Source of the DNA: an uncultured Microbacterium sp.
GTDB taxonomy: Bacteria > Actinomycetota > Actinomycetes > Actinomycetales > Microbacteriaceae
NCBI GenBank assembly: GCA_913774845.1
Contig: CAJYJO010000038.1
Location: 1 to 41,423, forward strand
DNA: 41,423 nt
Direction: 5' to 3'
The translations under genes were made by a program, and so were the position numbers. The notes beneath the pieces are model-generated. The model saw nothing but the letters and a program-made list of their open reading frames with translations. It made no database searches and was not told where the DNA came from. Shown one piece after another: positions 27,636 through 36,880 of this stretch. Each line of letters begins with the position of its first letter. Positions within the stretch are counted from its first letter, which is position 1.

Positions 27636-27709
<74 letters not shown>

Positions 27710-27713
27710 CAGA

Positions 27714-27749
27714 AAAGCCCTGACAAGACGGCAGTTTTGTCAGGGCTTT
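27714..27749 (+). terminator. Terminator after tRNA-Pro
   Basis: AAAGCCCTGACAA (27714-27726) pairs perfectly with TTGTCAGGGCTTT (27737-27749). This stem ends in T residues and is the most classical intrinsic terminator in the window. Confidence 0.85.
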
Positions 27750-27766
27750 GTCGTTCTTTCAAATCG

Positions 27767-27881
27767 GGTTCTCTGGTGCCCTTGTGGTCCCCTTGCCCGG
27801 CGAGGCTTACCGCTCAATCCTGTGGGGGGAGAGCTGACGCCGCAGATCTGTGGATAAGGGGACCGAAAGGGGACCAGAACC
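27767..27881. repeat. Nested inverted and direct repeats after tRNA-Pro
   Basis: GGTTCT (27767-27772) and GGTCCCCTT (27786-27794) are mirrored by two direct copies of AAGGGGACC (27856-27864 and 27867-27875) and by AGAACC (27876-27881). The layout resembles arm-type sites or remnants next to a tRNA attachment site. No integrase gene is present. Confidence 0.4.
27849..27857 (-). other. Second perfect DnaA box
   Basis: TTATCCACA on the minus strand, within the repeat cluster downstream of tRNA-Pro, 2.9 kb from the first exact match. Significance unclear. Confidence 0.35.
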
Positions 27882-28073
27882 ACATGGGTTCGCGTTCGAG
27901 AAGCGAGGTGTCGTTCGTCGGGGTAGAGGTCAGCCGTACGCCGCCTCCATTGAGGCGTCCCGGACGATCTCTGTTCAAACTGACCACGAAGAGATCGACG
28001 GACCGAAATCGCTTGAGTCGACTCGATCAGATCGAGAGCGCCTCAGGTCCCGCGGCGTCGGCAGCGTGGGGGT

Positions 28074-28757
28074 TCAGATGCTCAGCAGCCGGTTCGTAAG
28101 TTCGTGCAGCACGGTGTCGCCGCCCGTGCCCTGTCGTTCGATGAGTTCAGCCTGCAGGCCGGCCCCGATCGCGCCGTCGATGTCGATGCGTGAATCGTCC
28201 CCGACGTACAGCACCGTTCTCGGATCAAGTCGAAGAAGCCGGCAGGCAATGGCGAACGCGTCAGCCGCAGGCTTGGCGCACTCAATCTCTTCCGACACGA
28301 CAATCGCATCGAACAGCGTATCGAGACCAGTCTTTTCGAGCTTGCGACGTTGCAATTCGGAAGCGCCGTTCGTGAGGAGGCCTATCCGGAACTGTCGGCG
28401 CAGACGCGCAACCGAGCCGAGCACATCGCGATAGAGATTCCAACTGCGTTCGTAATGTTCGAGATATCGACCGTAGTGGGCGATCAACTCTTCGTGTTCT
28501 GCTGTCGGCGGCCCGTCAGTCGCAGCGGATAGGAACTCCTGCATTCGATAGGCGCGCGTGGTTGACATTGTGACGCCGCGCTGCGGTGTTGGCGGGAACT
28601 TTCTCTCTGCAGCTGACCAGTGCTGCATGTTGGTGCTGTTGGGATCGATCGCCATCTCGGCCGCCCAACTGATGAAAGCTTGCTTCGCTGCCGCCTCATG
28701 GTCCAGCAGAGTGTTGTCGAGGTCAAAGAGAATCCCGCAAATCGCGCTCATCATCAT
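28074..28757 (-). CDS. HAD-superfamily phosphatase (last gene of the NeuB-like operon)
   Basis: 227 residues. HAD motifs in order: I, FDLDNTLLD (D12, D14); II, LLTNG; III, the lysine in CAKPAADAF; IV, YVGDDSRIDIDGA. The long helical cap after motif I is of the type found in N-acylneuraminate-9-phosphatases, beta-phosphoglucomutases and general sugar phosphatases. Operon context with a NeuB-like synthase suggests it dephosphorylates the keto-sugar product or its precursor; a role as phosphatase for an AvrD-derived signal is equally possible. Three ATGs in a row (28757, 28754, 28751) make the exact start uncertain; the first overlaps the stop of the aldolase gene. Confidence 0.85.
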   Translation of the reverse strand: MMMSAICGILFDLDNTLLDHEAAAKQAFISWAAEMAIDPNSTNMQHWSAAERKFPPTPQRGVTMSTTRAYRMQEFLSAATDGPPTAEHEELIAHYGRYLEHYERSWNLYRDVLGSVARLRRQFRIGLLTNGASELQRRKLEKTGLDTLFDAIVVSEEIECAKPAADAFAIACRLLRLDPRTVLYVGDDSRIDIDGAIGAGLQAELIERQGTGGDTVLHELTNRLLSI

Positions 28758-29644
28758 TGCTGATCGAGCAACGGGAAGATGTCGTGGACTATCTCATTTC
28801 GTTGTTGAGTGGTAAGAGGAATCAGCGGGGTTCTTACTCGATCGCTGTCTATGATCCCTTGATTTGCGAGAACGAACTTGAACTTGGCGATGAATCCTGT
28901 CTTCGGTACGGATAGGAACATGGTCACAGGAGCCAGTCTGAGTGCTATCCGATACGCTTCCTCGGTCTGGCCACTATCAAAGGCGAGATGAAGCGCCGTG
29001 ATTTCGGGCGGGAGAATGTTTCCGATCGCCGTGGCCGACCCCCTCCCTCCGGCCCGCAGACCCTGGAGCAGCATCATGTCCTCGCCGACGATGGTCGTCA
29101 CTTGCGGAGCGGCTTGACGGTATGTATCGAAGAGCGACGGGTCTGCGGTAGCGATCTTGGCGTAGCGAACGTTTGAGGCGGTCGCTGCGGTCTGCCGCAG
29201 GACCTCAGGACTCATGCGAATTCCGTTCGACCCGTCGTACAGCATCACATCGCACTCGGTTGACGCGGCTATGGCGGTGTAGTGGGCCACCTGCGCGTCG
29301 GAACTGGTGTCGAAGTAGATGGGAGGGATCACCATCACGCAGTCCGCGCCAGCTGCTTGTGCTTCCGCGGTGAGCGCGATGCTTTCTGCTGTGCCGTCGC
29401 TGCCTACACCGACCGTGACAGGGACCCGGCCGGCAACATGAGCGGTCCCCGCGTGAATGATCCGGACTCGCTCCTCATGAGTGAGTGCGAAGAACTCCCC
29501 GGTTGAGCCGAGGAGGATGACACCACGCGCCCCGCCCGCGATGACGTGATCGATAAGTCGCGCGAGGGAGCGCTCGTCAACGTCGCCGTAGTCATCGAAC
29601 GGAGTGACAAGGAGGGTGTTAGCACCCGCGAGGTCGAGAGTCAT
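28754..29644 (-). CDS. DapA/NanA-family aldolase (dihydrodipicolinate synthase-like)
   Basis: 296 residues, a class I pyruvate aldolase TIM barrel. Key residues are seen: GSTGE (46-50), Y136 in DVMLYDGSN, and K163 in YAKIAT as the Schiff-base lysine. The usual KEASGD after the lysine is replaced by KIATADPS, which argues against a true DapA. Members include N-acetylneuraminate lyase, KDG aldolase and others. In this operon it may make or break a keto acid from pyruvate and an aldehyde or sugar. The start ATG 29644 overlaps the stop of the MFS gene (ATGA); the much longer open frame upstream is not used. Confidence 0.88.
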   Translation of the reverse strand: MTLDLAGANTLLVTPFDDYGDVDERSLARLIDHVIAGGARGVILLGSTGEFFALTHEERVRIIHAGTAHVAGRVPVTVGVGSDGTAESIALTAEAQAAGADCVMVIPPIYFDTSSDAQVAHYTAIAASTECDVMLYDGSNGIRMSPEVLRQTAATASNVRYAKIATADPSLFDTYRQAAPQVTTIVGEDMMLLQGLRAGGRGSATAIGNILPPEITALHLAFDSGQTEEAYRIALRLAPVTMFLSVPKTGFIAKFKFVLANQGIIDSDRVRTPLIPLTTQQRNEIVHDIFPLLDQQ

Positions 29645-30792
29645 GAGACGGCCCTTCTTTTGTCGGTACGTATCCAGGGGAGGAAGACCAGGCTGACCAG
29701 GGACACGCCTGCCATCGTCAGGAGTGCGACTGCGAAGCTTGCGTCGATCTGGAAGCCAGCCACCCACGTCAGTGCGGCCGTCGCCAGTCCCATCGCAAGC
29801 GACGCGTAGAGGCCTTGCGCGGCCGCCTGGAGGTCGAGGTCGACTCGGTCGCGGACGTAGATTGCGAAGGCGATCTGGGTTGTCGCGTAGGAGCCTGCGT
29901 GCAGGAGTTGTGAGGCGGCGAGAACCTCCCAGTTCCCGGCGACGGCAAGGGTGGCCCAGCGCAGAGCAGCGGCTATAGCGCCGATGGCGAAGAGGGCCCG
30001 GTAACCCAGGCCTTCGAAACGAGCCCGTGCGAGTGTGAATAGTGCGAACTCGCTCAGCGGGGCGAGAACGAGGAGGAATGGCACGGCCGCGGGAGTGACT
30101 ATCTCGCTGAACCGGATGGCTCCGAAGCTGTAGTACGCGGCGTGGGATCCCTGTACAAGCATGGCGATCAGCAGGCACGCCAGGAATACTCGGTCTCGGG
30201 CTAGGGCCGCGAATCCGTGTGTTCCGGAGCCACGAATCGCGAGCGCGTCGGGCGCCGTGGGCTGGACAAAGCCCGCGAGCGCCATGAGCAGACATGCCCC
30301 GATGAGCACGTACACGAGGACGCCAGCGCCGAGGGTTGAGGTGAACCATCCCGCCGCGAGGGTTCCCGCCATGAATCCTGCTGATCCGAAGGACCGCGTA
30401 GGGCCGTATGGCAGCAGTCCCTGTCGGGCGGCCGTCGTCGCGAGGGTCTCGTTCAGAGGAAGCATGATCGGGTAGATCAGCCCAAAGATCACGGAGACGA
30501 CGACAAGCGTCGGGAAGCCCGCGACGAACACGTAAGGTACTGCTGCTGCGGTGAGCAGCCATGGTACGACCCTGCTCAGGCGAAGCAACGTCGCATGCCG
30601 GTTTAGCGCGGGATAGATGAGCGCCACAGTGACAGCTCGCGACATGAGCGAGCACGCGACCGCGCTGCCGATCTCAATGGCGGAGAAACCTCGATTCGCC
30701 AGCCACAGTCCCCAGTACGACTGGAACACGGCCCAGCTGACAAAGAATGTGAAGAACCTCGTCGACACCCAGGATCGGACGTTCAGCGTCAC
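29641..30792 (-). CDS. MFS transporter
   Basis: 383 residues with about twelve membrane helices. The N-terminal FFVSWAVFQSYWGLWLANRGFS resembles the MFS_1-like/HcaT sugar and aromatic acid transporter subgroup, while LLPYGPTRSFGSAGFMAGTLA is the conserved loop after helix 4. The direction of transport cannot be read from sequence. In this operon it could export the product or take up a precursor. It overlaps both neighbours by 4 bp. Confidence 0.85.
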   Translation of the reverse strand: MTLNVRSWVSTRFFTFFVSWAVFQSYWGLWLANRGFSAIEIGSAVACSLMSRAVTVALIYPALNRHATLLRLSRVVPWLLTAAAVPYVFVAGFPTLVVVSVIFGLIYPIMLPLNETLATTAARQGLLPYGPTRSFGSAGFMAGTLAAGWFTSTLGAGVLVYVLIGACLLMALAGFVQPTAPDALAIRGSGTHGFAALARDRVFLACLLIAMLVQGSHAAYYSFGAIRFSEIVTPAAVPFLLVLAPLSEFALFTLARARFEGLGYRALFAIGAIAAALRWATLAVAGNWEVLAASQLLHAGSYATTQIAFAIYVRDRVDLDLQAAAQGLYASLAMGLATAALTWVAGFQIDASFAVALLTMAGVSLVSLVFLPWIRTDKRRAVS

Positions 30793-31574
30793 GGCGCGAA
30801 CTCCTCCAACCTCGCGACGAGCGCTTCATTCGTTGTCTCGTCCGGATACAACTCGGCGATCCGTGCCGGCTGCTCGCCCGCGTTTACCAGAACTCCTGAG
30901 TTGTGAAGTTCGCTTGTCACCTCCTTCACACACGTCTCGATTCCAAGCGCCAGAGACCCGAGTGGTTCCGCCCCGCTTTCGAGGACCATCTTTGTCGGGA
31001 GGCGGGTACCCGGATGAATCGCGTTGACCGCCACGGATCTGCTTGCCCACCTTCTCGAGAACACCTCCGTGACGATCAGGCTGAGCGCCTTCGACTGCCG
31101 GTAGGCGTTCTCGCGGGACCACGCGTTGCAGAGTTGCAGATCGTTCGCATCTACAAGTTGTTGGTTGGTCGAGGCAAGGTTCACGACACGCCCACCGTGG
31201 CCGATCATCTTCACGAGACCCTTCATGAGGAAGAGTGGCGCGAGCACGTTCACCGCCAGGCGTGACTCGATGCCATCCTCCGTCACCTTCCTCACGGCGT
31301 CTGGTGGACCATATCCGAGCGCAGCATTGTTCACGAGGACGTCGATCCGATCCGTCTCGCTCCAAACCTGAGCGATCAGATCTGAAAGCTCGCGCCGCGA
31401 TTCCAAGTTCGCTGCTACGGTCCGCGCACCCCCGTCGGCTAGTGACCGACCTTGCTCAGCGGACCGCACGTGGGCGATGACCGTCCATCCCCGGTCCAGA
31501 AGCGCGCGGCACACGCCGCTGCCCACGCCTCCAGCCGCGCCCGTAACCAGGGCGACCCGCCCGGAACCCGTCAC
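30789..31574 (-). CDS. SDR-family oxidoreductase
   Basis: 261 residues, classical short-chain dehydrogenase/reductase. The cofactor motif is TGAAGGVGSGV (residues 11-21), followed by NNAALG, a catalytic serine in NLASTNQ and YRQSK with the catalytic Tyr and Lys. The absence of an acidic residue at the end of strand 2 (AHVRSAEQG, with Arg) suggests NADPH preference. In gamma-butyrolactone synthesis an SDR reduces the side-chain ketone; in sugar pathways SDRs act on keto sugars. Both readings are possible here. ATGA overlaps with the genes on each side. Confidence 0.87.
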   Translation of the reverse strand: MTGSGRVALVTGAAGGVGSGVCRALLDRGWTVIAHVRSAEQGRSLADGGARTVAANLESRRELSDLIAQVWSETDRIDVLVNNAALGYGPPDAVRKVTEDGIESRLAVNVLAPLFLMKGLVKMIGHGGRVVNLASTNQQLVDANDLQLCNAWSRENAYRQSKALSLIVTEVFSRRWASRSVAVNAIHPGTRLPTKMVLESGAEPLGSLALGIETCVKEVTSELHNSGVLVNAGEQPARIAELYPDETTNEALVARLEEFAP

Positions 31575-32632
31575 AGTTGTGCGTCGACGAGATCAGAAGG
31601 CTTCAGCACGTGCTCATCCTCAACATCACGACTCAGCCGGGCCCCCAGAACGAGTTCGAGAGCCGACGGCCTGATACCCGACCGGCCGGAGGTCTTCGCA
31701 GCGATCATCTCTCGTCCCACGATCGTGCCGGCCGGATGGCTGCCGAGCACGACCAGAGTCTTCGCCATCTTCTCCAATGCGGGGGCTTCTTGCGGGATCT
31801 GCCGCTTCACAGGTGATCCAAGTGCTTGGCAGGCTGTCGCGAGGTCTTCCACCATCGCTTGCATCTCGGCTGGAGTCTGCGAGAAGTGATGGTCGCTCCC
31901 GGGGGCCCCTTTGTCGAGGGTGAAGTGTCGCTCGATGATCCGCGCGCCCAGTGAAAAAGCCGCCACCGGCACCACGTCCAGCACATCGTGTCCTGAGTAC
32001 CCGATGACGGTGCTCGGGAACATCTGGCGATAGGTGTCGATCACTCGCAGGTTCAACTGCTGTGCTTGTGCGGGATATGTCGCCGTGCACTGCAGAAGCG
32101 CGAAGTTGGCGGCGACACTCTCCAAAGCGCTCACTGCGCCGACGACGTCGGAGAGGTTCGCTCCGCCGGTGCTGACGATGACAGGTATTCCCGTTGCCCC
32201 GGCTGCTTTCAGCAAAGGGGTGTTTGTCAGGTCGCCTGACGCGATCTTGATCGCGGGGAGCTCGAGGCTCATGATGAACTCCAGGCTCGTTTCGTCGAAG
32301 GCCGTGGTGAAGAAATCGATCCCGATCCTCGAGGCGAATTCCTGAAGCTCACGATATTCGGCGTCGCCGAACTCCAACGCCTCGCGGTGCTCACCGTAGG
32401 TCGAACCGTAGCTGTTTCGCCCGCTATACGGCTTGTCGAACATCTCCCTCGTGAAGAGGGCCCGATTATCTCGCTTCTGCAACTTGACGGCGGAGGCGCC
32501 CGCCGCGGCAGCGGCGGAGAACAGCGCTTTGGCCTCCTCCAGATCGCCGCCGTGGTTGTGGCCAATCTCGGCGATCACGTAAGCCGCCGACGAGTCTGAA
32601 ATCTCAGCTCTTCCGATTTTAAGAGTGCGCAT
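31571..32632 (-). CDS. NeuB-like synthase (PEP-dependent C9/C8 keto-sugar acid synthase) with SAF domain
   Basis: 353 residues, first gene of the operon. The TIM-barrel part has IAEIGHNHGGDLEEAK (20-35), KLQKRDN, KIASGDLTN, STGGAN and a C-terminal barrel block IERHFTLDKGAPGSDHHFS with metal-binding histidines. The SAF antifreeze-like domain covers about 285-345 (GTIVGREMIAAKTSG then GIRPSALELVLG). The usual HC of the HCTxxYP segment is QC here. Known members condense PEP with ManNAc, a 6-deoxy-diaminohexose or ManNAc-6-P. No NeuA or NeuC homologue is nearby, so the product is probably not destined for a glycan by the standard route. GGAGGAAAG directly precedes the ATG. Confidence 0.92.
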   Translation of the reverse strand: MRTLKIGRAEISDSSAAYVIAEIGHNHGGDLEEAKALFSAAAAAGASAVKLQKRDNRALFTREMFDKPYSGRNSYGSTYGEHREALEFGDAEYRELQEFASRIGIDFFTTAFDETSLEFIMSLELPAIKIASGDLTNTPLLKAAGATGIPVIVSTGGANLSDVVGAVSALESVAANFALLQCTATYPAQAQQLNLRVIDTYRQMFPSTVIGYSGHDVLDVVPVAAFSLGARIIERHFTLDKGAPGSDHHFSQTPAEMQAMVEDLATACQALGSPVKRQIPQEAPALEKMAKTLVVLGSHPAGTIVGREMIAAKTSGRSGIRPSALELVLGARLSRDVEDEHVLKPSDLVDAQL

Positions 32633-32842
32633 CTTTCCTCCGTTGCGGCTACTTCCGAGGTATTGACAGATTGAAGGCGCGGGAATGTCTAGCCCCGTCT
32701 GGTGAAGGAAATCGCCCTCTCGCAGAGGTGGTCCTTCCGCTCTTTCCGCTTCTTCGTCGCCTGTCGGCTCCGCTCCTGAGTGCAGTCACGGCGACACGTA
32801 GGCATCTGGTTGCGAGGACATCCGTAGGTTCCGTGCCACTCC

Positions 32843-32879
32843 TCACACTTTTAGACACTTACATCTAAGTCACGTGTGA
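32843..32879. promoter_or_regulatory. Nested dyad in the long gap upstream of the NeuB-like operon: candidate operator/promoter
   Basis: Outer arms TCACAC (32843-32848) and GTGTGA (32874-32879) surround inner arms TTAGA (32851-32855) and TCTAA (32864-32868). The block is AT-rich in a GC-rich setting and about 210 bp upstream of the synthase start. Size and symmetry suit a TetR-family dimer, and the TetR gene lies immediately upstream. On the minus strand the block also offers AT-rich -10-like sequences. The rest of the 548-bp gap shows no gene. Confidence 0.5.
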
Positions 32880-32915
32880 TCGGAGGCTAGCATCGTCCAT
32901 CGCGAGCGCGCAACG

Positions 32916-33095
32916 ATCCGGATGTGCCCAAGGGCGAACGGGGTCGGGTGGGTCGTGCGCGCAACCGCCGGCGCCCTTAAAGCGGGGGTCGACTGTCGTC
33001 CGCTGTGTCCTTGGCGGCAGTGCTCATCCGGATCGCTCCGTGCGGCGCGTCCCGGTTCCACGGCTAAGTGAACTCACAGATGGAACTATCCGGAT
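32916..33095. repeat. Three copies of the palindrome ATCCGGAT
   Basis: ATCCGGAT occurs at 32916-32923, 33026-33033 and 33088-33095 within 180 bp of non-coding DNA between the TetR gene and the NeuB-like operon. The outer two are flanked by CAACGAT in opposite orientation. Possibly regulator half-sites. Confidence 0.4.
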
Positions 33096-33180
33096 TCGTG
33101 CAACGATGAGTCAAGTTCCCACTCGCGAAGGGCTAGCTGACATGCACGCAACCCCGGCCGTCCATCATTACGCGCGACCG

Positions 33181-33819
33181 TCAGAAAGGTGGATGCGCAA
33201 TGAGGCCTGGTAAGAGATATGTCCACATCCGCTCGAGCTGCTTTTCGAGGGACTGCATCGAGCCGGTCTCCCGAGCGACGATGTACACGCCAATGGCGGC
33301 TTGCACGACCACGATTGCAGCCTCACGCACATCAAGATCTCGCCGAACCGTCCCGTCGGCGATTCCCTGACCAAGAAACCCTCGGACGAAGCTATGCCAA
33401 ACCTCGTATGCACTGCTTCCTGGGGTGCCCCCATGAACCTCAGGTGTGATGCGCATGGCCGCCCGCGCTCGGACGTCGTCGCGGAGCACGAGCGCGGCCC
33501 TTCGCATCATCTCTTTCATGGCGTCGATGCCAGTAAGCCCGACGCTGTTGACATCTACAACGATGTCCGGCCATATCTCGTGCTTCTGAGCGATGAGCTC
33601 TCTTGCCATCGAATCTTTGGTCGCGAAGTGGTAGTGGACCGCCCCGCGAGTCGCTCCGGCACCATCGATGATCCGCTGGATCTGTGCGCCCGCTACGCCG
33701 TGAGCCTCGAATTCTCTGGCGGCGGCGTCAAGAATCCGTTCACGAGCATCCTCGCCTCGGACGTTGGTGCGACGCTTCCTTCCGTGCCCGGGTGGTTGCG
33801 CACCTATCGTGTCCGCCAT
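33181..33819 (-). CDS. TetR-family regulator, gamma-butyrolactone-receptor (ArpA/ScbR) type
   Basis: 212 residues from ATG 33819. The N-terminal HTH (ERILDAAAREFEAHGVAGAQ, then GATRGAVHYHFATKD) is closest in style to ArpA/ScbR autoregulator receptors, whose hallmark is G-A-T-x-G-A-x-Y-x-HF. The ligand domain follows to residue 212. Upstream in-frame starts at 33846 and 33867 would run into the avrD-like gene; 33819 fits the HTH spacing and has GGGGAG three bases upstream, somewhat close. It is divergent from the AvrD-family gene and codirectional with the NeuB-like operon. As a receptor it would repress until the AvrD-derived ligand accumulates; that pairing is inference. Confidence 0.82.
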   Translation of the reverse strand: MADTIGAQPPGHGRKRRTNVRGEDARERILDAAAREFEAHGVAGAQIQRIIDGAGATRGAVHYHFATKDSMARELIAQKHEIWPDIVVDVNSVGLTGIDAMKEMMRRAALVLRDDVRARAAMRITPEVHGGTPGSSAYEVWHSFVRGFLGQGIADGTVRRDLDVREAAIVVVQAAIGVYIVARETGSMQSLEKQLERMWTYLLPGLIAHPPF

Positions 33820-33822
33820 TGT

Positions 33823-33839
33823 CTCCCCGCACGGCGGAG
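33823..33839. promoter_or_regulatory. Imperfect palindrome supplying ribosome-binding sites on both strands
   Basis: CTCCCCGCACGGCGGAG lies between the divergent starts of the TetR (33819) and AvrD-family (33845) genes. GGAG at 33836-33839 is the AvrD ribosome-binding site on the plus strand; its mirror reads GGGGAG before the TetR ATG on the minus strand. Promoters must therefore lie inside the opposing genes and the two mRNAs overlap. Confidence 0.6.
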
Positions 33840-33844
33840 CACTC

Positions 33845-34816
33845 ATGCCCAGTGACACCGCTCGCATCTTCGATTCCTTCGACGAAGCTCTCGGCCCCGG
33901 CGAAGGCCGCTTCTTCGGCTCTCGCTATCGTAGCGTCACCCACCGGCTCTCGGACGTGAGAGCCGTCGGTGCGCTCGGAACGCGAGTCGAAGCTCTCGGG
34001 CAGGTCGAGCTGGGTGGTGGATGGTCCGTCAAGACCACCGTCCCCGCCGAGACACCGCATCTATCGACGATGGATATGCTCCGATTTTCCGCGACTCTCG
34101 CGGAGATCGACCTGGCCTGCCGAGTTGGACTTCGTTCGCACGAGCTGGCGGCCGCGTGGGTGAGCCAGTTCTCGTTGACAGCGGGCTCGGCTCCGGTACT
34201 CGATCTTGCGCGCATAGTGATGAGCGCAACGGTTGTCTCTGTCGATGAGGAAGCCGGCACGGCTGTCAGCACACGGTACGAGGCTCGTTTTGGTCTGGCG
34301 AAAGCGTCGATTACCGTACGTCACCCCTCAGGCAATGGTCGGCGGAAGGCCTCTGACATTGGTGACGTGGGAAGTGTTCTCAGCGATGACGCTCATCGCC
34401 TCTATGGAGGTGCCCACGGCGAGTCCAGTCATGACGTCCGCCGGATCCGATACGACCGCGACCTCTCACGCTTGGACTTCGACGTGACGGTGCTGGCACC
34501 ACAAGGGCTTGCCGGTCTCGAGAGCGCGCATTTCCCCTCTGCGTCTTTGATCGATGTCCTTGCTATCGGTGGGCAGGCAGCGCAAATCGTCACTTACATG
34601 CTCGATGACGTCGACCGAGATCGGTCGAGCCCGTTTTGGCTTCGTCGGATCTCATTCTCGGCACCCTTCGCTCAGAGACCGACCCGATCGACTGGCACTC
34701 TTCACACGAAGAGAAGCGCCCTGGTAACGCGGGGTCGCCATGTCTGGCGAACCGCCGAGTTTGCCCTCGAGTTAGCGGACGTGAGCGTGGATGCGTCGGT
34801 TGCCCACCTGCTTTGA
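33845..34816 (+). CDS. AvrD-family protein (putative acyl-ketose signal synthase)
   Basis: 323 residues; Pseudomonas syringae AvrD is about 311. Matching blocks from memory of the family: RFFGSRYRSVTHRLSDVR (22-39), GWSVKTTV then TPHLSTMDMLRFS (H72, D76), WVSQFSLTAGSAP, and in the second half RLYGG (185), SASLIDVLAIGGQAAQIV and SPFWLRRISFSA. The halves repeat the order FG/YG, His, S-x-x-D, suggesting a double hot-dog fold like the butyrolactone synthase AfsA. AvrD makes syringolides from a beta-ketoacyl chain and a pentulose. ATG 33845 is supported by GGAG at 5 nt and leaves only 25 bp to the divergent TetR start. GC content is lower than the core genes, consistent with acquisition. Confidence 0.83.
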   Translation: MPSDTARIFDSFDEALGPGEGRFFGSRYRSVTHRLSDVRAVGALGTRVEALGQVELGGGWSVKTTVPAETPHLSTMDMLRFSATLAEIDLACRVGLRSHELAAAWVSQFSLTAGSAPVLDLARIVMSATVVSVDEEAGTAVSTRYEARFGLAKASITVRHPSGNGRRKASDIGDVGSVLSDDAHRLYGGAHGESSHDVRRIRYDRDLSRLDFDVTVLAPQGLAGLESAHFPSASLIDVLAIGGQAAQIVTYMLDDVDRDRSSPFWLRRISFSAPFAQRPTRSTGTLHTKRSALVTRGRHVWRTAEFALELADVSVDASVAHLL

Positions 34817-34970
34817 TCAACAGAGAAAATAGGATTTCCCAAGTCCGCCCGTAGGCTCCATGCCCTCTGCGCGCAACCTCGCGATATCTGAGACGAGCAG
34901 CTTGTCCCCCCGAACTGCCTTGCTCACTTTGTCGCGCCTGCCGCATCCCGGCCTTAGCGCCCGCGCCGAC
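34817..34970 (-). pseudogene. Decayed C-terminal fragment of a serine resolvase/invertase
   Basis: One minus-strand frame reads GRRDKVSKAVRGDKLL, VSDIARLRAEGMEPTG and then degenerates (GLGKSYFLC) to a stop at 34819-34817. RLRAEGMxPTxIAKxLxIGRxSVYR is the C-terminal HTH of Tn3-type resolvases; the last helix is scrambled here and no catalytic N-terminal domain remains. It converges tail to tail on the AvrD gene and is cut off by the IS element. The call rests on a short match. Confidence 0.4.
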
Positions 34971-35004
34971 CTCCGCCTGGCGCTGCGAAGGGGCGCGACA
35001 GTCG

Positions 35005-35979
35005 CTAGGTGTACTGACCTCGACCGTTGTTGATTCGGTCGATGAGGGTCTGGCCTGCGATGCCGAGGTGGGCTCTATCTAGGTTGTAGTGGTCGAGCCA
35101 TGTTGGCAAGGCGTCCGCGCGGGCGGTGTTCGAGGTCCATGCCCGGGCGTAGGCCCACTCCGCCGCCAGGGTGCGGTTGAGGCGTTCGACTTTGCCGTTG
35201 GTCCAGGGGCAGTGCGGGCGGATGAACTTCTGAGTGATGCCGTGCGCGTCGATCACGGCGTGGAATGCTGCGGAGTGTCGGTAGGCGAACGCGTTGTCGC
35301 TGATGACACGTTCGACCCTGACGCCGAGGGTCGCATAGAACGCGATGGCGCGTTCGAGTACCCCTGCAGCGGTGGCGCCTTTCTCGTCATCGTGGATCTC
35401 CGCGTAGACCACTCGGGAGTGGTCATCGATCACGGTGTGGACGTAGTCGTAGCCGAGGCCCCGCTTGTGTGCGGGGCGTGATCCGCGGCCATGCGCGCGC
35501 CATCCGCCCCCGTCAGGGATTCGGCCGAGTTTCTTCACATCGACGTGGATCAAGGACCCGGGATAGTCGTGCTCGTAGCGGTTCGCGCTGCGGCGCGTCG
35601 CGCGGATCACCGTCCCGGTCACGGGGTCCAGGTCCCGCAGAAGAGGGACGCGGTGACGGCGCAACACGCGACCGACCGTCGAGGCCTGCATGCCGAGCTT
35701 GGACGCGATGAACACCGGGCCACGACGCGTGAGCTCCCGCATGATCCTCACGCGGGTCTCCACGCACGGCCCGGTCCTGGCCGGGTGCGAGCGGGCGATG
35801 CTGGAACGATCGATCAGACCCGCCGCGCCGTGCTCCTGGAACCGTCGCCACCACCGCCACGCCGTTGTCCGCGAGACACCCATCTCGGAAGCGACATGCG
35901 CCACCGCGCGCCCCGATTCGATGCGCTGGACCATGATCAACCGGCCGGCCGGAGCCAGCCGGGCATTACCGTGAGACAC
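35005..35979 (-). CDS. IS481-family transposase
   Basis: 324 residues. The N-terminal HTH (VSRTTAWRWWRRFQEHG) is followed by a second HTH and a DDE catalytic domain: first Asp in LIHVDVKKLG, second Asp in RVISDNAFAY, Glu in NGKVERLNRTL. The start is GTG at 35979 with GGAGG six bases upstream. The reading frame passes through the terminal repeat and its TAG stop (35007-35005) lies in the flanking CTAG target duplication, so the element depends on its target for translation termination. Full length, no frameshift. Confidence 0.93.
   Translation of the reverse strand: MSHGNARLAPAGRLIMVQRIESGRAVAHVASEMGVSRTTAWRWWRRFQEHGAAGLIDRSSIARSHPARTGPCVETRVRIMRELTRRGPVFIASKLGMQASTVGRVLRRHRVPLLRDLDPVTGTVIRATRRSANRYEHDYPGSLIHVDVKKLGRIPDGGGWRAHGRGSRPAHKRGLGYDYVHTVIDDHSRVVYAEIHDDEKGATAAGVLERAIAFYATLGVRVERVISDNAFAYRHSAAFHAVIDAHGITQKFIRPHCPWTNGKVERLNRTLAAEWAYARAWTSNTARADALPTWLDHYNLDRAHLGIAGQTLIDRINNGRGQYT
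35010..35033 (+). repeat. Left terminal inverted repeat of the IS481-family element
   Basis: TGTACTGACCTCGACCGTTG and four further bases. It matches the right repeat at 20 of 24 positions, with TGTACTGACC and CGTTGTTGA identical. Confidence 0.85.
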
Positions 35980-36073: not shown

Positions 36074-36880
36074 CTAGACGTGCACGGGGCAGTTCTGGTC
36101 ACCACGGGCGTGGGAGCGGCCGTCGCCGCCGTCGCCACGGGCAGTGAGGACGGCTGGACCGCTGCATCAACACTCCTGTGCGCTGCTGCCGGGGTCGTGC
36201 TCCTGACCGCCTTCGTCATCGTCGAGCAGCGGACAGCGCACCCGATCATGCCCCTGCGGCTGTTCCGCGTGCGCAGTCTCGTCGGAGCGAACGTGTTCGG
36301 CTTCTTCCTGTCTGCGGGACAACTTGCCGCGTTCTACTTCTGCTCGATCTACATTCAGCAGGTCTGGGGGATCGAGCCCGCCCTCGCGGGGGTGCTGTTC
36401 CTGCCGTTCTCCCTCTTCGTGGTCGTCGGTATCGCGATCGCGCAGCGCCTCGCGGCCCGGGTCGGTATGCGCACGGCGCTCCTCGTCCACGGTATCGTCG
36501 GCGCTGCCGGGCTCGGCTGGTTCTCGCTCATGCCCGCGGAAATCGCGTTCTGGCAGGGGATCGCCGGGCCCTCCCTGTTCGCAGCCGTCGGCATCGGAGG
36601 GGCCTTCATGCTGCTCGGGTCGGCCGGCACCTCCGGCGTCGTGCCGCACGACGCCGGCATCGCCTCGGGGGTGCTCAACAGCTCACGCCAGCTGGGCGGC
36701 ACGATCGGACTCGCCGCCCTGGTCGCCGTGGCCACCGCAACGACCGGTGCGGCGGCGGCGACCCCCGTCGACGCGCTCGCCCAGGGCTATCGCGCCGGGC
36801 TCGGATACGGCGCGGTGCTGCTAGCGATCGGAGCAGTCGCCGCGTTCGCGATCGTGCCGCGCTCCGCTCGGGTCGACTGA
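36074..36880 (+). pseudogene. DHA2-type MFS drug transporter, 5' truncated at the IS element
   Basis: The open frame begins at the IS boundary (LDVHGAVLVTTGVGAA) and contains only the C-terminal eight or so helices of a 14-helix EmrB/QacA-type transporter, with the inter-domain loop (RTAHPIMPLRLFRVRS) and a normal C-terminus (PRSARVD). The N-terminal ~200 residues with motifs A and C are missing, and the DNA left of the IS does not encode them. Insertion plus deletion at the island edge explains this. A GTG at 36080 could start a 266-residue fragment, but transport activity is unlikely. Confidence 0.8.

What the first reader, a model, noticed from the sequence alone, without database searches (positions are those of the whole stretch)
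33181..34816. AvrD-family gene divergent from a butyrolactone-receptor-type TetR gene
An AvrD-like protein with conserved blocks in both halves is encoded back to back with an ArpA/ScbR-type TetR regulator, 25 bp between start codons. The layout mirrors afsA-like synthase / receptor pairs of Streptomyces, but with AvrD as presumed synthase. This would be a syringolide-like quorum or host signal in a Microbacterium-like bacterium. Seen: motifs and layout. Known: AvrD makes acyl-ketose syringolides; ArpA-type TetRs bind butyrolactones. Inferred: that the two are a synthase-receptor pair.
Basis: partly seen in the sequence, partly recalled or inferred. Interest (0 to 1): 0.87.

Follow-up and report, generated by a model that had tools for sequence, protein, structure and literature searches.

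The report
AvrD paired with a hormone-receptor-type repressor
An actinobacterium carries, back to back, a gene related to the enzyme that makes syringolides and a gene for a hormone-sensing type of repressor, and comparison with related genomes suggests that together they form a small-molecule signalling system with an unexpected kind of signal-making enzyme.

Summary
Window 33845-34816(+) encodes a full-length AvrD protein (PF05655, E 2e-54); 33181-33819(-) encodes a TetR close to autoregulator receptors. Start codons are 25 bp apart.

The synthase-receptor reading, a guess in stage one, gains comparative support. An ScbR-like TetR lies beside AvrD in 17 of 20 Microbacteriaceae loci (13 of 13 in the window's genus), in three orientations, and the two proteins co-diverge more than RpoB explains. 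In 21 AvrD loci outside the family it is absent; 18 have ketosynthase III and/or acyl-carrier genes instead. Of 26 other strong ScbR-like receptors in the genus, 14 sit beside AfsA, the classical synthase, and AvrD pairs and AfsA pairs share two subfamilies of reductases. So AvrD seems to occupy AfsA's seat in butyrolactone-type cassettes. AvrD models as a double hot-dog fold.

Limits: nothing biochemical; the window's own pair has no dedicated reductase; no operator palindrome was found; signal and targets are unknown. A 2020 paper knows only AfsA- and Aco-type synthases; AvrD would be a third.

The parts
33845..34816 (+). AvrD-family protein, 323 aa (presumed signal synthase)
   Evidence: PF05655 E 2.2e-54 full length; conserved columns; model pLDDT 87, pTM 0.88
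33938..34327 (+). first hot-dog half of AvrD (residues 32-161, holds conserved His72 and Asp77)
   Evidence: secondary structure of the model; TesB and dehydratase matches; conserved columns
34427..34810 (+). second hot-dog half of AvrD (residues 195-322, holds Gln244, Gln247, Asp254, Arg258, Trp265, Arg267)
33181..33819 (-). ScbR/MmfR-like TetR regulator, 212 aa (presumed receptor and repressor)
   Evidence: NF041196 136 bits; PDB relatives 6srn, CprB, AvaR1; tree
33595..33735 (-). helix-turn-helix domain of the TetR (residues 29-75), intact
   Evidence: TetR_N 45.6 bits
33397..33399 (-). codon of Trp141, aligned with CprB Trp127; invariant in the 18 receptors of A1
   Evidence: that this Trp belongs to the ligand pocket of ArpA/CprB is recalled
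33820..33844 (.). 25-bp gap between the two start codons; promoters probably overlap coding sequence; no palindrome found

Best explanation
The pair is a minimal autoregulator (bacterial hormone) module. AvrD, a double hot-dog enzyme, condenses a beta-ketoacyl thioester drawn from fatty-acid synthesis with a ketose to give a butenolide- or acyl-ketose-type small molecule. At sufficient concentration this binds the C-terminal pocket of the neighbouring ScbR/MmfR-like TetR, which lets go of DNA and derepresses avrD, itself and perhaps other genes. Shown here: families, anatomy, predicted fold, conserved adjacency, co-divergence, AvrD in the place of AfsA beside the same receptor family and the same reductase subfamilies. 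Inferred: the reaction and substrates (from AvrD and MmyD), ligand binding, the direction of regulation, the targets.
For: Adjacent ScbR-like TetR in 17 of 20 Microbacteriaceae AvrD loci, 13 of 13 in the genus, the 17 all matching NF041196 at E<=1e-5; 8 tandem, 5 convergent, 4 divergent, so the link survives rearrangement. On an assumed 4 such TetRs per 3400 genes, chance adjacency is about 0.24% per locus. AvrD and TetR distances correlate at r 0.78, 0.73 after taking out RpoB for 16 of 17 pairs. Of 32 strong ScbR-like hits (>=130 bits) in 295 genus genomes, 14 lie beside AfsA, 6 beside AvrD, 1 has AfsA 6 kb off, 11 neither. In 34 genomes chosen for a strong ScbR or an AvrD, all 13 SDR hits >=200 bits lie at AvrD pairs (5) or AfsA pairs (8), and all 10 NAD-epimerase-like hits >=77 bits lie at AvrD pairs (6) or AfsA loci (4). 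Short-chain dehydrogenase and NAD-epimerase are the GblD and GblE enzyme types of butyrolactone clusters (PMC5735094, passages). avrD alone makes syringolides in E. coli (PMC3879358, passages). AvrD labels on the receptor tree need 5 changes, at least 3 forced.
Against: No biochemistry. The window's pair has neither reductase; its genome has no AfsA and, for the cassette SDR, only generic hits (<=94 bits). No operator-like palindrome. The TetR scores below the NF041196 naming cut-off. The window's AvrD is unplaced near biosynthetic AvrDs (32% to L092), while its TetR groups with those of L053/L054, so this pair may be a separate pairing. Three Microbacteriaceae AvrD loci (L048, L049, L052) lack the TetR. 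Two Nocardia loci (L090, L095) have a TetR of another kind beside AvrD (33-36 bits to the receptor profile), so a TetR neighbour alone is no proof. AvrD and AfsA show no detectable sequence kinship.
Confidence: 0.72

Rival explanations
1. AvrD makes a secreted natural product (antibiotic- or elicitor-like butenolide or furan); the TetR only controls its production, in response to the product or to another cue, with no signalling role.
For: In 18 of 21 loci opened outside Microbacteriaceae AvrD has KAS III and/or ACP genes near it, and mmyD is needed for methylenomycin (PMC12593393, passages). The window's AvrD lies near these in the tree.
Against: No KAS III near any of 20 Microbacteriaceae AvrDs and only one weak, distant ACP hit; the partner is a receptor-family TetR in 17 of 20, and the accessory reductases are those of AfsA-type loci.
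Confidence: 0.16
2. The TetR listens to a foreign butyrolactone (eavesdropping) and AvrD is an output gene under its control.
For: The window's genome shows one strong ScbR-like receptor and no AfsA; the layout fits repression of avrD by the TetR.
Against: Co-divergence of TetR and AvrD and AvrD in the place of AfsA with shared reductases point to a cognate ligand.
Confidence: 0.08
3. A passenger pair on a genomic island, decayed or silent in this host.
For: Low-GC stretch between tRNA-Pro and an IS481 element; no dedicated reductase.
Against: Both ORFs intact, conserved AvrD residues and the receptor Trp kept.
Confidence: 0.04

Closest known systems
AfsA/ArpA-type (ScbA/ScbR, GblA/GblR) gamma-butyrolactone systems
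   Same: Receptor family; adjacency of synthase and receptor; GblD-type SDR or GblE-type NAD-epimerase beside 11 of the 17 AvrD pairs; hot-dog fold (for AfsA by its Pfam name, recalled)
   Different: Synthase is AvrD (PF05655), with no detectable sequence similarity to AfsA (PF03756) by hhalign; the window's own pair lacks the reductase
Aco/ArpA-type avenolide systems
   Same: ArpA-type receptor with a non-AfsA synthase
   Different: Aco is an acyl-CoA oxidase-type enzyme (PMC7670052, passages); none among the eight window proteins scanned, the pair and six neighbours
Syringolide synthesis by AvrD of Pseudomonas syringae
   Same: Same enzyme family; a single enzyme suffices in E. coli (PMC3879358, passages)
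   Different: About 25% identity; HrpL-controlled there; its neighbourhood was not opened here
Methylenomycin cluster (mmyD with mmfL/mmfR/mmyR)
   Same: AvrD homologue and an ScbR-like TetR occur in one system; the window TetR's best PDB relative, 6srn/7ky1, differs by eye at one position from the L033 TetR of a methylenomycin-type plasmid over the stretch printed
   Different: There AvrD makes the antibiotic and mmfL, mmfH and mmfP the hormone (PMC12593393, passages); AvrD has KAS III and ACP neighbours and lies about 9 kb from the TetR

Membership tests
AvrD (PF05655) | Full-length profile match over the curated cut-off | tested here: met
   185.5 bits vs 25, positions 2-330 of 331
AvrD (PF05655) | Condensation of a beta-ketoacyl thioester with a ketose | not testable with these tools
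   stated for AvrD, proposed for MmyD
ScbR/ArpA-type autoregulator receptor | TetR helix-turn-helix domain | tested here: met
   TetR_N 45.6 bits
ScbR/ArpA-type autoregulator receptor | NCBIfam NF041196 equivalog cut-off (150 bits) | tested here: not met
   136.2 bits; background TetRs of the genus about 75, other AvrD partners from 181 down to 79 or lower; hence called ScbR-like, not ScbR
ScbR/ArpA-type autoregulator receptor | Conserved ligand-pocket Trp (CprB Trp127; role recalled) | tested here: met
   Trp141; invariant in 18 of 18
ScbR/ArpA-type autoregulator receptor | Binds a butyrolactone, butenolide or furan | not testable with these tools
   none
AfsA/ArpA butyrolactone system | AfsA (PF03756) synthase | tested here: not met
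   0 hits in G000; the AvrD hits only PF05655
AfsA/ArpA butyrolactone system | GblD- or GblE-type reductase beside the pair | tested here: not met
   absent for the window; present beside 11 of 17 AvrD pairs
Aco/ArpA avenolide system | Acyl-CoA oxidase (Aco) beside the receptor | tested here: not met
   none among the eight window proteins scanned, the pair and six neighbours
Syringolide/methylenomycin-type AvrD cluster | KAS III and/or ACP genes near avrD | tested here: not met
   none in the window by phmmer with a Streptomyces KAS III and ACP
Hot-dog fold | Two beta-beta-alpha-beta-beta-beta-beta halves | tested here: met

The most novel reading that the evidence does not exclude
AvrD is a third class of autoregulator synthase in Actinomycetota: syringolide-like acyl-ketose or butenolide molecules serve as quorum signals read by ArpA-type TetRs, synthases of unrelated sequence (AfsA and AvrD) having been exchanged repeatedly beside the same receptors and reductases; in one clade the receptor has lost its DNA-binding domain and works through a second TetR.
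Probability: 0.5. Interest if true: 0.9.

Novelty: new variant of a known kind. Interest (0 to 1): 0.78.

Why it matters
[quoted passage not shown] If AvrD makes the ligand of its neighbouring receptor, a third synthase type exists, a plant-elicitor enzyme family gains a bacterial signalling role, and the 17 two- or three-gene loci seen here become ready-made test cases. The AfsA cassettes in sister genomes give matched controls.

Tried and rejected
Operator search: no palindrome beyond shuffles around the 25-bp gap, in the TetR-NeuB gap or downstream of AvrD. In one search, 13 regions from the window and relatives were each held against 60 single-base shuffles; only one, upstream of AvrD in L042, was matched by as few as 1 of 60, and its near twin L043 showed nothing like it. 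One sigma-70-like site was found in 32600-35050, minus strand 33114-33085 (0.4 expected).

Window SDR as the AvrD reductase: rejected. It scores 42-63 bits against the cassette SDRs and belongs to a five-gene NeuB-SDR-MFS-DHDPS-HAD operon that recurs, without TetR or AvrD in the 17-18 kb fetched, in L149 and L150.

NeuB operon as a regular partner of AvrD: rejected (no recurrence among the 20 loci); it could still be a local target.

Dropped rows and limits of the counts. L055 (G454, 22 bits, below the cut-off, no AvrD ORF found) is left out of all counts; the second copy of the G502 locus (L027, same coordinates on another contig, genome with 9% contamination) is counted once. G239 had no RpoB hit, so one search uses 16 of 17 pairs. 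Of 16 plasmid records with AvrD I opened 4; the 11 Pseudomonas records and a second S. anthocyanicus record were not opened, so '0 of 21' does not cover Pseudomonas. The 21 outside loci were scored with a receptor profile built from the AvrD-linked TetRs (A1), not with NF041196; one of the 17 named loci (L094) is only 3.2 kb long. L038 and L040 are cut short on one side of AvrD. In the genome searches only part of the first-look candidates were scored (10 a genome, 5-7). Reductases were sought only in 34 genomes chosen because they hold a strong ScbR or an AvrD, so their rarity elsewhere is not shown. A phylum sample (396 genomes) found no AvrD beyond the window's own although Streptomyces and Nocardia hold it: not a census. 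The first genome-contig scan with P0001 alone confirmed no relative. The SDR tree is poorly resolved with very long outgroup branches; I do not lean on it. The structure alignment used 16 of the 17 named loci (L094 left out).

Literature. Searches with AvrD or syringolide and on butyrolactone systems with Microbacterium or Microbacteriaceae among the terms listed no paper that by title or abstract proposes AvrD as an autoregulator synthase; one search listed 20 of 1,382. Passages were read in PMC12593393, PMC11195616, PMC3879358, PMC4748050, PMC5735094 and PMC7670052; all others were seen as listings only. Subscription papers are not held.

Full report
The thing itself. Window 33845-34816 (+) encodes a 323-residue protein that matches PF05655 (AvrD) over its whole length, 185.5 bits, E 2.2e-54, and no other Pfam family at E<=1. 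It is the one AvrD match in the genome. Window 33181-33819 (-) encodes a 212-residue TetR with an intact helix-turn-helix (45.6 bits). Its best NCBIfam match is the ScbR autoregulator-receptor family at 136.2 bits, under the naming cut-off of 150. Its best PDB relatives are 6srn/7ky1 (deposited as a TetR; MmfR by recall) and CprB, with a gamma-butyrolactone receptor and AvaR1 close behind. Trp141 aligns with CprB Trp127 and is invariant in 18 of 18 receptors compared; that this residue lines the ligand pocket is recalled. The start codons are 25 bp apart, so promoters probably overlap coding sequence. No operator palindrome was found.

Neighbours of AvrD. AvrD matches occur in 13 of 295 genomes of the window's genus and in 9 of 398 of a family sample, window included, 8 of them over the cut-off. 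I fetched the surroundings of 20 loci; one (L055, under the cut-off) showed no AvrD ORF, which leaves 19 plus the window. An ScbR-like TetR lies directly beside AvrD in 17 of these 20: 13 of 13 in the genus, 4 of 7 in other genera; the 17 all match NF041196 at E<=1e-5. Orientation varies: 8 tandem, 5 convergent, 4 divergent (window, L037, L053, L054). Outside the family I opened 4 of 16 plasmid records and 17 named genome loci, from Nocardia, Streptomyces, Kitasatospora, Saccharothrix, Actinokineospora, Amycolatopsis and Arthrobacter. Of these 21, none has an ScbR-like TetR beside AvrD, though two Nocardia loci (L090, L095) have a TetR of another kind there (33-36 bits to my receptor profile, against 188-260 for the AvrD-linked ones it was built from); 18 of 21 have KAS III and/or an ACP gene near AvrD. 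No KAS III occurs near any of the 20 Microbacteriaceae AvrDs, and the only ACP hit is a weak one 6 kb off in L042. Fisher p is 7.5e-9 each way; the loci are not independent, so this is only a guide. Pseudomonas neighbourhoods were not opened.

Co-divergence. For the 17 pairs, TetR and AvrD distance matrices correlate at r 0.78 (0.65 without two near-twins). With RpoB distances taken out, for the 16 pairs with an RpoB hit, the partial correlation is 0.73 (0.55 without the near-twins), while each correlates with RpoB at only 0.33-0.36.

AvrD takes the seat of AfsA. In 295 genus genomes, with 10 candidates a genome scored, there are 32 ScbR-like hits of 130 bits or more, in 22 genomes. AfsA was sought in those 22 and in 12 further AvrD genomes. 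Of the 32, 14 lie beside AfsA (confirmed in L123-L136), 6 beside AvrD, 1 has AfsA about 6 kb away, and 11 have neither, one of these (L085) with a partial AfsA-like ORF 226 bp away. The SDR beside five AvrD pairs (L039, L040, L041, L046, L047) is of one subfamily with the SDR beside eight AfsA pairs: all 13 hits of 200 bits or more in the 34 genomes are at such loci, the next being 188 bits at an unchecked place in G244 and then 123. The NAD-epimerase-like enzyme beside six other AvrD pairs (L036, L037, L042, L043, L050, L051) is related to the one at four AfsA loci: the ten best hits are all at such loci, the next 54 bits. These 34 genomes were chosen because they hold a strong ScbR or an AvrD; others were not searched for the reductases. 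Kitasatospora L098 and L100 show a related epimerase beside AfsA and ScbR (64-71 bits). Short-chain dehydrogenase and NAD-epimerase are the types called GblD and GblE in butyrolactone clusters, GblE's homologue JadW2 being essential for butyrolactone synthesis (PMC5735094, passages). Two further pairs (L053, L054) have a luciferase-like oxidoreductase. Four pairs (window, L038, L044, L045) have none of these.

Trees. On the receptor tree of 46 proteins the AvrD label needs 5 changes, at least 3 forced by well supported branches; AvrD against AfsA alone needs 4. The window's TetR groups with those of L053 and L054 (99/90) and, more loosely, with an AfsA-linked TetR (L131) and the methylenomycin-type TetR (95/88). 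On the AvrD tree the pair label needs 2 changes and one origin is not ruled out; the window's AvrD is a long branch in an unresolved region near the biosynthetic AvrDs. So AvrD lineages seem to have been joined to receptors of several kinds, and the window's pair may be a joining of its own.

Degenerate receptors. In the tandem clade (L038-L041, L045-L047) five of seven AvrD-linked receptors have no detectable helix-turn-helix and one only a trace (16 bits), yet all keep the pocket Trp; a second, divergent TetR (TetR_C_11) lies upstream of AvrD in six by Pfam and in L046 by a weak profile hit.

How it probably works. avrD alone makes syringolides in E. coli (PMC3879358, passage), and MmyD, an AvrD homologue, is proposed to join acetoacetyl-ACP to a pentulose (PMC12593393, passages). 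So AvrD with host fatty-acid and sugar intermediates could make a signal by itself, which fits the window's two-gene module without reductase. The signal would bind the TetR and relieve repression. The binding, the signal and the targets are inference.

Setting. The pair lies on a low-GC stretch (about 0.58-0.65 against about 0.70) between tRNA-Pro(GGG) at 27636-27710 and an IS481 element at 35005-35979, together with a five-gene operon (NeuB-like, SDR, MFS, DHDPS-like, HAD) that recurs elsewhere without AvrD or TetR beside it. The genus is not named by any search; Microbacterium is an inference (a Microbacteriaceae-sized group with hundreds of species, IS481 nearest to a Microbacterium plasmid at 83%).

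What is known. A 2020 paper lists only AfsA-like and Aco-like autoregulator synthases (PMC7670052, passage); a 2016 review saw no evidence of quorum sensing in Microbacterium (PMC4748050, passage). My searches listed no paper that by title or abstract proposes AvrD as such a synthase; subscription literature was not searchable. The finding is therefore best called a new variant of ArpA-type autoregulator systems.

Noticed in passing
window 27636-35979: Low-GC stretch between tRNA-Pro(GGG) and an IS481 element; the MFS gene at 36080-36880 next to the IS looks 5'-truncated. Probable genomic island.
   Followed up: partly
window 28074-32632; L149, L150: Tight five-gene operon (NeuB-like synthase, SDR, MFS, DHDPS/NAL-like aldolase, HAD) conserved at 48-76% identity in two sister genomes without TetR or AvrD beside it; may make an unusual sugar acid.
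   Followed up: partly
L038, L040, L041, L045, L046, L047: AvrD-linked ScbR-like proteins with no or only a trace of helix-turn-helix but a kept pocket Trp, with a second TetR divergent upstream of AvrD.
   Followed up: partly
L123-L126, L135, L136 (genome G272): One genome of the genus carries six separate AfsA-ScbR loci.
   Followed up: no
L098, L100 (Kitasatospora aureofaciens): AvrD-KAS III-ACP cluster with an AfsA-ScbR-NAD-epimerase cassette a few kb away, reminiscent of the methylenomycin arrangement.
   Followed up: no
L090, L091, L093-L096 and L032 (Nocardia): AvrD directly downstream of a KAS III-like gene in Nocardia; L090 and L095 also have a convergent TetR of another kind.
   Followed up: no
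L076-L086: Eleven strong ScbR-like receptors without a full AfsA or AvrD neighbour; L085 has a 136-aa AfsA-like remnant close by.
   Followed up: partly
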